Part shown: piece after piece, positions 18,557-21,580 of the stretch
How positions within the stretch are numbered: the stretch's first letter is position 1
Layout: each line of letters opens with the position of its first letter
From: an uncultured Clostridia bacterium
Lineage (GTDB): Bacteria > Bacillota > Clostridia > Christensenellales > CAG-138
Direction of reading: 5' to 3'
DNA length: 37,234 nt
Assembly (NCBI GenBank): GCA_944336625.1
Contig: CALVLF010000091.1
Span: 1 to 37,234, forward strand
Made by a program: the position numbers and the translations under genes
The notes under the pieces: model-generated
What the model was told of the DNA's origin: nothing
Databases searched by the model: none
Seen by the model: only the letters and a program-made list of their open reading frames with translations

Positions 18557-19162
18557 TCACCGGGGCCAGAAACGAAGGATAGCGGGAGCGGCAGCGCTTT
18601 CTAAAATAATGCAAAAAATAAGGCAAGCCACGGACCGCGGCCCCAGCCCTCTATTGTCCACGCCTACTTCCCCAAGCAGGCGGAGGGTTATAGCCGCCCC
18701 GCACAGCAAGCCCGGCGCCAGGCAAAGGGGAACGCCCCAGGCAAGGCCCTTGGCCCCCAGGGAATGAAATAGAAAATACAGCGCCGTGCCCATAAAGGCG
18801 CCCTTTAGCCCTATGGATAGGCCGCCAGCCACAAAAAGAGGCCGCCAGAGCCTGGGCAGATAGGCGGCGCAATACAGCAAGAGATTTAATGCTGCCGAAT
18901 GGAGAAGGGCCGGAAGAAGTTGATAGCTTTCTGCCTGGGCAGCGGAAAGAAATAGCTCCGGTACAGCGCCCGCAAGCTGCGCCTCCGCAGTTTTCGCCAG
19001 GGATATCCCCGCAGCGGTGCCCGCAATAAAATAAAACAGCAGCAGTAAAATTAGATAAGGATGCCTGAAAAAGGCCTGGAGAAGATCTTCTGAATTTTTA
19101 AAATAGCCTGTCTGTTGAATACCCATGCTCATATGTACGCCGGCAGGGGTAAGCATATGCAT
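18557..19162 (-). CDS. spoIIM: SpoIIM-like integral membrane protein
   Basis: Up to 201 residues with about five hydrophobic helices (near 33-54, 80-100, 106-125, 128-148, 180-195). The helix pattern and the GGLSIGLKGAFMGTALYFL segment resemble SpoIIM (DUF95), part of the engulfment machinery with SpoIID and SpoIIP. The position between spo0A and deoB supports this, since spoIIM lies near deoB in Bacillus. The match is by pattern rather than strict motif. The start is unclear: ATGs at 19162, 19156, 19132 and 19126 are all in frame, none has a ribosome site, and all fall in an inverted repeat (19122-19165). The longest frame is reported. Confidence 0.6.
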   Translation of the reverse strand: MHMLTPAGVHMSMGIQQTGYFKNSEDLLQAFFRHPYLILLLLFYFIAGTAAGISLAKTAEAQLAGAVPELFLSAAQAESYQLLPALLHSAALNLLLYCAAYLPRLWRPLFVAGGLSIGLKGAFMGTALYFLFHSLGAKGLAWGVPLCLAPGLLCGAAITLRLLGEVGVDNRGLGPRSVACLIFCIILESAAAPAILRFWPR

Positions 19163-19169: not shown

Positions 19170-19955
19170 TTATGGCAGTTTCATCAAGCGGCGGCTAACC
19201 TGCTCGGAAATGTTGAAGATAAATTCCTTGTTGGTGGGGCGGGTTTTGTCCTCTTCAACCGTGTTTCCGAAGACTTTATGCTGTGCTTTCAGGTTCCCGC
19301 GGGTCCAGCTTACTTCAATAAAGTTGCGTATATTGCGCTCGATCTGCTTTGAATTTACACCGTGGACTTTGGCCGCATAAGGATATGCATCTTTGGAGAG
19401 GCAGATGCCCCGGCCAATGTTTCTTATGCAAAAGGCGATCACCGTCTTTGCCTGATAATAGCCTGCCAGGCTCACCGGGCAGCCCATAAAGCGGAAGAGC
19501 TTGGTAATGTATTCATCGATCTGAAGGTTTATTTCATTTTCCCGCATACGGGAGCGAAGCAGCTTTAAGGAGTTATCCTGATCTGGGGCAAAATCCATCA
19601 TCCGGCTAAAGATCAGGCTTTCATCCGTGGGCATTTGGATATGGTAGGTAACGCCCAGGCTTTCCCCCAGCTGGATGGCTTCCTCGCCCTTCATGGACGA
19701 TAGGGCGAAAATGCGCGTATTTTTACAAAGTTCCTGCGCGCGAAGCTGCCGTAAAACAGCAATTCCGTCCATTTTGGGCATGAGCATATCCAGCAGCATC
19801 ATATCCGGATTATAAAGCTGGGCATGCACAACGCCAGCCGCCCCATCAATTGCAGAGGGGAGCAGCGTAATAATGGGGATTTTAGAAAAATAATTTTCTA
19901 GTCGCTCACGCAAAGTAACATTATCTGTTACAATAAGTAAAGAATATGTTTTCAT
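19170..19955 (-). CDS. spo0A: Spo0A, sporulation master regulator, with an atypical receiver domain
   Basis: A 261-residue Spo0A. The C-terminal DNA-binding domain is well kept (about 140-256; NSKQIERNIRNFIEVSWTRG is the recognition region, and TRPTNKEFI follows). The N-terminal receiver (1-120) keeps the phosphate-accepting D56 (LLDMLMPKMDG), but the acidic pair is T10-D11 rather than D-D. S86 stands for threonine, and M108 (HIQMPTD) replaces the near-invariant lysine of the KP motif. Such changes usually weaken phosphorylation or its signal. The place after spoIVB is standard. The gene has its own promoter (20018-20046) and a weak ribosome site (GAGAG). Confidence 0.93.
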   Translation of the reverse strand: MKTYSLLIVTDNVTLRERLENYFSKIPIITLLPSAIDGAAGVVHAQLYNPDMMLLDMLMPKMDGIAVLRQLRAQELCKNTRIFALSSMKGEEAIQLGESLGVTYHIQMPTDESLIFSRMMDFAPDQDNSLKLLRSRMRENEINLQIDEYITKLFRFMGCPVSLAGYYQAKTVIAFCIRNIGRGICLSKDAYPYAAKVHGVNSKQIERNIRNFIEVSWTRGNLKAQHKVFGNTVEEDKTRPTNKEFIFNISEQVSRRLMKLP

Positions 19956-20285: not shown

Positions 20286-21530
20286 TCAGCACATTTCATA
20301 CATCCAAAGGGCATATATGCAATATCCCCGCAAGGGGTCGTTAACGAATACATGCGTGACCGCGCCAATCAGCTTTCCATCCTGGATGATGGGGCTGCCG
20401 CTCATGCCCTGAACGATGCCCCCCGTCTTTTCGATCAGGTCTGGATCAGTAATCTGCACTACCATTCCCTTTCCCGCCGCTTCTGTTTGGGGATATACCT
20501 TGATAATCTGGCAGTCATAAGCCTGTACGCCCGCTTCATCTACTGTGGCCAGGAGCTGTGCCGGCCCAGTATGGACCTCTTCTGGGTAGGCCAGAAGCAT
20601 GCCCTGGGGATACAAGGGGTTTTGCACAGGCGCATAAAGCTCGCCATAGATCCCTAGATCGCTATTGGTATCTATGGTGCCCAGATGCTGGCTCACGGCG
20701 CTGAAAGTGCCCTGTAATTCCCCAGGAAGGCCGCTACTTCCCTGCGATACGCCTAAAACGCTAGAGTGCAGAATCTCCCCTTCCTTAACCGAGAGGAGTG
20801 CGCCGGTATCCACATCCGTAATTGGATGGCCCAAAGCACCATAGCGTAGGCTGTCCATGGCATAAAATGACAGGGTTCCGATTCCCGCTGTACTATCCCT
20901 TACCCACATGCCCATCTTATAGACCCCGTCTGTGGCGTCCTGGGCCGGCTGCAAGGTTACTTCCAGCTCTTCCCCGGATCTTTCCAGGCGCAGGCAAATT
21001 TTCCCCTTCGTTTCGTTGCACAGGCTGGTCAGATGGGCTGCATCCTTCACCCCGGTGCCTTCCACTGCCAGAATCACATCCCCCACCCGAATTCCGCTTT
21101 CCCGCGCTGGGCAGACAGCCTCTCCCGATGGATTTTCAAAGCTGCCCAGGCCTACGACCAGGGCGCCCTGGGTATGCAGGGTAACGCCTACGGACTGGCC
21201 GCCGGGCATCACCCAGATCTCGTCCCGGGCTCGAAATGATATCTCCTTTACGGGTATGAAGTCGAAAAGCTGAATCTGAACCGTATAGCCCTTTTCGTTT
21301 CCCAACCCCTGGCTTAAATCCTGGCTGACAGCCTGGTCACCTTCCCCATAATCTACGGAAAAGGGCCCGGAAATATAGGCTAATTCCTTCTCGCTTTCCG
21401 ATCCCAGATAGGCGTAATCCGGCAATTCGCGGATCCGCTGGGCCTCTTCCCCGTAATTAAAGCTCATCAGCAGCAGGCACAGCACCACGCCCAAACTGCG
21501 CATAAACATCCGCGCCCCGCCTTTTTTCAC
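20286..21530 (-). CDS. spoIVB: SpoIVB serine peptidase
   Basis: A 414-residue SpoIVB, the forespore-secreted serine peptidase that signals across the intermembrane space to trigger pro-sigma-K processing. It has an N-terminal signal/anchor helix (about 9-22), a PDZ domain (about 110-180; GIRVGDVILAVEG) and the S55 peptidase domain. The catalytic histidine is in GALGHPITD, the serine in GMSGSPI, and the aspartate 15 residues before the serine, as in B. subtilis (D363, S378). The GTG at 21530 is chosen as start because GAGGAG stands 8 nt upstream; the longer frame would run into the recN terminator. It sits between recN and spo0A as usual. Confidence 0.93.
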   Translation of the reverse strand: MKKGGARMFMRSLGVVLCLLLMSFNYGEEAQRIRELPDYAYLGSESEKELAYISGPFSVDYGEGDQAVSQDLSQGLGNEKGYTVQIQLFDFIPVKEISFRARDEIWVMPGGQSVGVTLHTQGALVVGLGSFENPSGEAVCPARESGIRVGDVILAVEGTGVKDAAHLTSLCNETKGKICLRLERSGEELEVTLQPAQDATDGVYKMGMWVRDSTAGIGTLSFYAMDSLRYGALGHPITDVDTGALLSVKEGEILHSSVLGVSQGSSGLPGELQGTFSAVSQHLGTIDTNSDLGIYGELYAPVQNPLYPQGMLLAYPEEVHTGPAQLLATVDEAGVQAYDCQIIKVYPQTEAAGKGMVVQITDPDLIEKTGGIVQGMSGSPIIQDGKLIGAVTHVFVNDPLRGYCIYALWMYEMC

Positions 21531-21544
21531 GCCACCACTCCTCA

Positions 21545-21580
21545 AAAAACTAAAAACTGCGGAATCCAATCCGCAGTTTT
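21545..21580 (-). terminator. recN terminator abutting the spoIVB ribosome site
   Basis: A perfect 11-bp stem (AAAACTGCGGA with TCCGCAGTTTT, arms 21570-21580 and 21553-21563), a 6-base loop, then UUUUUAGUUUUUU that runs straight into the GAGGAG of spoIVB. Confidence 0.85.

What the first reader, a model, noticed from the sequence alone, without database searches (positions are those of the whole stretch)
19170..19955. Spo0A with a degraded phosphorylation site
The aspartate D56 is kept, but the near-invariant lysine of the receiver is methionine (M108), one of the two acidic-pocket residues is threonine (T10), and the switch threonine is serine. The DNA-binding domain is normal. This suggests Spo0A here is controlled differently: weak or no phosphorylation, constitutive dimerisation, or control by amount.
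Basis: partly seen in the sequence, partly recalled or inferred. Interest (0 to 1): 0.65.

Follow-up and report, generated by a model that had tools for sequence, protein, structure and literature searches.

The report
Second, phosphosite-eroded Spo0A paralogue
The gene sitting where the sporulation master switch Spo0A is normally found turns out to be a fast-changing sister copy with a damaged phosphorylation pocket, while a second, far better conserved Spo0A elsewhere in the same genome most likely runs sporulation.

Summary
In detail: the minus-strand ORF 19955..19170 has T10, D11, D56, S86 and M108. T10 and M108 are shared by all three genomes of the genus, so they are not errors. S86 is ordinary. 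The DNA-binding domain folds normally, but its recognition helix departs at seven positions.

The window gene keeps the ancestral spoIVB locus. The other copy lies beside a SipL-domain gene and belongs to an ancient second Spo0A lineage shared with other Clostridia (100/100 support), probably including Clostridium thermocellum's known second Spo0A.

Across Christensenellales the locus copy diverges (complete pocket in 7 of 42) while the other keeps a near-invariant helix. One genus lacking SpoIVA, SpoIIGA and the second copy still keeps the locus copy.

So this is a pseudo-receiver paralogue under purifying selection. It most likely acts as a phosphorylation-independent (or weakly phosphorylated) regulator beside the main Spo0A, like WhiI beside BldM. 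The surprise is the main copy: its phospho-aspartate is Glu in 8 of 19 genera that keep sporulation genes.

The parts
19170..19955 (-). spo0A paralogue at the ancestral spoIVB locus ('LOC' copy), 261 aa
   Evidence: ORF; Pfam Response_reg + Spo0A_C; TIGR02875 148 bits, below cut-off 200
19584..19955 (-). receiver domain (residues 1-124), complete (beta-alpha)5 fold predicted; pseudo-receiver by residue content
   Evidence: AlphaFold2 mean pLDDT 91; best PDB match the Spo0A receiver 5wq0, rmsd 1.3-1.6
19926..19928 (-). codon of T10 (first acidic-pocket position lost)
   Evidence: shared by three genomes of the genus
19923..19925 (-). codon of D11 (second acidic position kept)
19788..19790 (-). 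codon of D56 (phospho-acceptor position kept)
19698..19700 (-). codon of S86 (Ser/Thr switch position; Ser is ordinary here)
19632..19634 (-). codon of M108 (replaces the invariant Lys)
19197..19520 (-). Spo0A_C DNA-binding domain (about residues 146-253), recognition helix altered at seven positions
20286..21569 (-). spoIVB (Peptidase_S55), the upstream neighbour that marks the ancestral spo0A locus
   Evidence: Pfam; synteny

Best explanation
The window gene is the locus-bound member of an old pair of Spo0A paralogues. In Christensenellales the other member, which lies next to a sipL-type gene, is the conserved Spo0A and most likely runs sporulation. The window copy has drifted into an atypical response regulator: it folds as a receiver plus Spo0A DNA-binding domain, is kept by purifying selection, but has lost one metal-binding acid and the invariant lysine, so aspartate phosphorylation can at best be weak and poorly transmitted. 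It most likely acts as a phosphorylation-independent transcription factor set by its amount, with altered DNA specificity, either on its own targets or by pairing or competing with the main Spo0A (as WhiI pairs with BldM). Shown: two paralogues, pocket loss fixed in the genus, purifying selection, retention in a genus that lacks SpoIVA, SpoIIGA and the second copy. Inferred: the loss of phospho-control, the shift of targets, the partnership.
For: Second full-length Spo0A in the same genome, 271 vs 148 bits on the Spo0A equivalog model with cut-off 200. 61 of 65 family genomes have two or more Spo0A_C matches; every locus fetched with spoIVB/recN/deoB holds a divergent copy, apart from the canonical one of G065. 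Trees: second copies of the order form one clade (100), which joins second copies of other families at 100/100, in genomes whose locus copy is canonical. Pocket complete in 7/42 locus copies, 12/12 classical. Protein 74% identical between species with 62% of fourfold sites changed. Second copy lies beside a SipL-domain gene. Genus g20 lacks SpoIVA and SpoIIGA, has no second-copy score, yet keeps the locus copy (L084). DNA-binding domain 32% identical to B. subtilis against 56% for the second copy. WhiI lacks the same two kinds of residue and works as a heterodimer (PMC4125116).
Against: D11, D56 and S86 are kept, and D56 survives in 32 of 42 locus copies, which suggests some lineages still use the aspartate. 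No expression, binding or interaction data exist. The conserved copy of this genome also lacks one pocket acid (S11), so the pocket alone does not separate the two. No exact 0A box lies upstream of the window gene.
Confidence: 0.6

Rival explanations
1. The protein is still a working phospho-switch. An orphan kinase phosphorylates D56 using D11 for the metal, and M108 merely changes signal transmission or lifetime, so it reads a different signal from the second Spo0A.
For: D11, D56 and S86 retained in all three species of the genus. Several histidine kinases without an adjacent response regulator are present (L231, L233, L234, L237, L238, L243, L249). D56 kept in 32/42 locus copies.
Against: K108 is otherwise invariant in Spo0A (57 of 57 classical and second copies). 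T10 also lost. Neighbouring locus copies lose D56 or other pocket residues repeatedly.
Confidence: 0.25
2. The gene is a remnant in slow decay after the second copy took over, with no function left.
For: Fast evolution, long branches; lower GC (47.5%) than the window (56.5%).
Against: Intact ORF with 74% protein identity at 62% changed fourfold sites; kept at the locus across many families and in a genus without the sporulation genes tested.
Confidence: 0.07
3. The window copy is still the sporulation regulator and the second copy does something else, as deletion of Clo1313_1409 alone abolishes sporulation in C. thermocellum.
For: In C. thermocellum the copy closer to B. subtilis Spo0A (Clo1313_1409) is required (PMC4890492); the locus is the classical one.
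Against: In this order the conservation is reversed: the second copy has the classical helix and K108, stands beside a SipL-domain gene and is the one missing together with SpoIVA and SpoIIGA in genus g20.
Confidence: 0.07
4. Assembly or sequencing error at codons 10 and 108.
For: None beyond the genome being a draft in 141 contigs.
Against: Both residues recur in two other assemblies of the genus, at 74% and 56% protein identity.
Confidence: 0.01

Closest known systems
Spo0A (B. subtilis type, TIGR02875 equivalog)
   Same: Domain order, locus next to spoIVB, receiver fold, E213/R214/R217 of the recognition helix
   Different: Pocket lacks the first acid and the lysine; 148 bits against a cut-off of 200; seven changed helix residues; a better Spo0A exists in the genome
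Second Spo0A of Clostridium thermocellum (Clo1313_0637 / Cthe_3087)
   Same: A genome with two Spo0A of unequal conservation; our second-copy lineage in other families has similar identities (47-53% to B. subtilis, 51-58% to the partner; the paper gives 49 and 56)
   Different: There the better conserved copy is the one required for sporulation and the second copy is not eroded to this degree; here it is the locus copy that is eroded. Orthology of Clo1313_0637 to our second copy is likely but was not tested with its sequence
WhiI of Streptomyces (atypical response regulator, partner of BldM)
   Same: Lacks the conserved lysine and one of the two adjacent aspartates (PMC4125116), acts beside another regulator in spore development
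   Different: Different effector domain, different phylum; heterodimer formation is shown there and only proposed here
Receiver-less Spo0A homologues of gut phages
   Same: Spo0A DNA-binding domain freed from phospho-control (PMC10294663)
   Different: The window protein keeps a folded receiver and is chromosomal at the ancestral locus; the short Spo0A_C ORFs elsewhere in the genome resemble these more

Membership tests
Spo0A (functional equivalog) | Score above the curated cut-off of TIGR02875 (200 bits) | tested here: not met
   148.4 bits; the second copy of the same genome scores 270.6
Spo0A (functional equivalog) | Receiver plus Spo0A_C domain | tested here: met
Spo0A (functional equivalog) | Complete phosphorylation pocket (two acids, D, T/S, K) | tested here: not met
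   T10 and M108
Spo0A (functional equivalog) | Position beside spoIVB | tested here: met
Spo0A (functional equivalog) | Required for sporulation; binds 0A boxes as a phospho-dimer | not testable with these tools
   needs genetics and biochemistry
Pseudo-receiver / atypical response regulator | Receiver fold lacking at least one of the five catalytic residues | tested here: met
   fold; residues; definition PMC12632262
Pseudo-receiver / atypical response regulator | Activity independent of aspartate phosphorylation | not testable with these tools
   needs in vitro phosphorylation and a D56A allele
Ancient second Spo0A lineage (sipL-linked) | Falls in the second-copy clade | tested here: not met
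   the window protein lies with the locus copies; the C101 copy is the member

The most novel reading that the evidence does not exclude
In this family of Christensenellales, Spo0A signalling has been taken off aspartate phosphorylation altogether. The locus copy is a pseudo-receiver partner, and the conserved sporulation Spo0A itself has lost the metal-binding acid and, in 8 of 19 genera that keep SpoIVA and SpoIIGA, carries glutamate at the phospho-acceptor, so sporulation would start without Spo0A~P.
Probability: 0.3. Interest if true: 0.8.

Novelty: new variant of a known kind. Interest (0 to 1): 0.55.

Why it matters
Spo0A presence is used as a marker for spore formation in gut metagenomes (for example PMC11536998), and Spo0A~P is taught as the universal trigger of sporulation. 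Here the gene at the classical spo0A locus is a diverged pseudo-receiver paralogue, and in one genus it persists where SpoIVA, SpoIIGA and the second copy were not found, so calling it Spo0A misleads. The order also offers a natural series, from intact pair to eroded pair to a glutamate at the phosphosite, in which to ask whether sporulation can be started without phosphorylating Spo0A.

Tried and rejected
Sequencing error: rejected, both residues recur in two relatives. Serine 86 as a sign of decay: rejected. Pseudogene: unlikely given intact frame and silent changes; formal dN/dS could not be computed because silent sites are saturated. A Christensenellales-specific duplication, my first reading of the tree, was withdrawn: the second copy is shared with other families of the class. 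Exact 0A boxes (TGTCGAA) are enriched upstream of both Spo0A types across the order (26 vs 2.1 and 11 vs 1.05 expected from mononucleotide shuffles, none upstream of spoIVB, deoB or dacF), but none lies upstream of either gene in this genome and spoIIGA upstreams of the family show no excess (3 vs 1.7), so no regulatory circuit is claimed for this genus. A promoter scan upstream found nothing above chance. Correlation of pos-11 loss with D56E is suggestive in counts (10 of 11) but has too few independent changes to test. The small membrane ORF 18557-19162 that I first took for SpoIIM matched no Pfam or NCBIfam model.

Full report
OBSERVATION. The ORF lies on the minus strand, 19955..19170, 261 aa. 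Pfam finds both expected domains. All three genomes of the genus, including Christensenella sp. UBA5394 and Christensenellaceae Hs463_bin26 among named records, share T10 and M108. M or L at 108 is also found in the neighbouring genera, while sister rows L087 and L135 keep a complete pocket, so the losses happened inside this family. Serine at 86 is as common as threonine in classical Spo0A.

SETTING. The gene stands in the classical place, downstream of spoIVB (Peptidase_S55), in the order nadK-argR-recN-spoIVB-spo0A-...-deoB (gene names other than spoIVB and the M50 peptidase from reading the sequences). The genome, however, has five Spo0A_C matches. One, on contig C101, is a full-length Spo0A with K108, D56 and a classical recognition helix; it scores 270.6 bits on the curated Spo0A model, the window protein 148 (cut-off 200). 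Named relatives place the genome in Christensenellales; the family is probably GTDB's CAG-74 (recollection).

DISTRIBUTION. 61 of 65 genomes of the family have at least two Spo0A_C matches, and many families of the order do too. I fetched loci and sorted copies by context: 'LOC' next to spoIVB, recN or deoB, and 'ECT' elsewhere. ECT copies are near-invariant in the recognition helix (TSASKVERAIRHAIEV) and keep K108 in 45 of 45. LOC copies diverge strongly; only 7 of 42 keep a complete pocket, against 12 of 12 classical Spo0A. Family f2 (G065) still has a canonical LOC copy next to an ECT copy (L188, L189; 350 and 312 bits), so the decay came after the pair existed.

ORIGIN. In a 100-row tree the ECT copies of the order form one clade (SH-aLRT 100). 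Genomes from other families of the class also carry two copies. Fetched and added, ten of their second copies join the Christensenellales ECT clade at 100/100, while their locus copies are canonical. Both ECT groups tend to sit upstream of a SipL-domain gene and ispE. So the pair is older than the order. A pair is known in Clostridium thermocellum: Clo1313_1409, whose deletion abolished sporulation, and Clo1313_0637, mutated in evolved strains (PMC4890492, PMC3804516, PMC8303734). The identities reported there match those of our pairs, but I could not place Clo1313_0637 itself. Placement of the longest LOC branches is uncertain, and the deep LOC grouping is weakly supported (87; dispersed).

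FUNCTIONAL SIGNS. The LOC protein is 74% identical between two species while 62% of fourfold sites differ, so it is maintained. AlphaFold2 gives a complete receiver fold (pLDDT 91), matched best by Spo0A receivers. The LOC DNA-binding domain is only 32% identical to B. subtilis Spo0A, against 56% for ECT, and seven recognition-helix positions differ while E213, R214 and R217 remain. In genus g20 (six genomes) SpoIVA and SpoIIGA are absent in all six, no genome has a second-copy score, and five of six keep a long Spo0A; the one examined (L084, G056) is a LOC copy between recN and deoB with spoIVB gone. Elsewhere the coupling is looser: f25/g46 lacks SpoIVA and keeps both copies. Read together, ECT goes with sporulation and LOC can serve something else.

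MECHANISM. By the definition of PMC12632262 the window receiver is a pseudo-receiver. It lacks DD1 and K but keeps DD2, D and S. WhiI of Streptomyces lacks the same two kinds of residue and acts by heterodimer with BldM (PMC4125116). The most likely reading is a regulator whose activity depends on its amount, with its own targets or in partnership or competition with the main Spo0A. The pair, the residues, the selection and the retention are shown; control by amount, pairing and targets are inferred. A weak remaining phospho-switch cannot be excluded, since D11, D56 and S86 survive and kinases without a neighbouring regulator exist.

BEYOND THE FINDING. The ECT Spo0A of this very genome lacks DD2 (S11). 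In 8 of 19 genera of the family examined (g3, g4, g10, g11, g13, g14, g17, g19) it has Glu at position 56 with Gly or Ser at 11, in every genome checked of those genera, and genomes of each of these genera hold SpoIVA and SpoIIGA. That is a sporulation regulator without a phosphorylatable aspartate in would-be spore formers, and is more surprising than the window gene. None of the papers I found mentions it, but the library is incomplete.

VERDICT. Observation confirmed; interpretation partly right but aimed at the wrong one of two Spo0A proteins. New variant of a known kind.

Noticed in passing
L026, L041, L039, L030, L024, L023, L025, L017-L019, L021, L028, L029, L040, L042, L034, L051 (second Spo0A copies): The conserved Spo0A has Glu instead of Asp at the phospho-acceptor, with Gly or Ser at position 11, in 8 of 19 genera of the family, in genera that keep SpoIVA and SpoIIGA.
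   Followed up: partly
G000:C132:15647-15940 (L044:3929-4333), G000:C113:60112-60306, G000:C22:18825-19022: Three further Spo0A_C matches in the genome, the first a stand-alone 134-aa protein without receiver that also matches a PHROG family; similar short ORFs occur in other genera, and truncated Spo0A is known from gut phages (PMC10294663).
   Followed up: partly
L075, L081, L091, L097: Tandem duplicate locus copies of spo0A between spoIVB and deoB in several genera, some with most of the receiver lost.
   Followed up: no
G092 (f4), G117 (f15): Nine and eight Spo0A_C matches in one genome.
   Followed up: no
G086, G106, G122, G146, G157, G168, G179, G188 (f23, genus g44): Very small genomes (0.8-1.2 Mb) that keep SpoIVA and three to five Spo0A_C matches.
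   Followed up: no
window 19170-19955: GC of the locus copy is 47.5% against 56.5% for the window.
   Followed up: no
L221 (G105, f21): A second-copy Spo0A with a classical recognition helix but an almost unrecognisable receiver.
   Followed up: no
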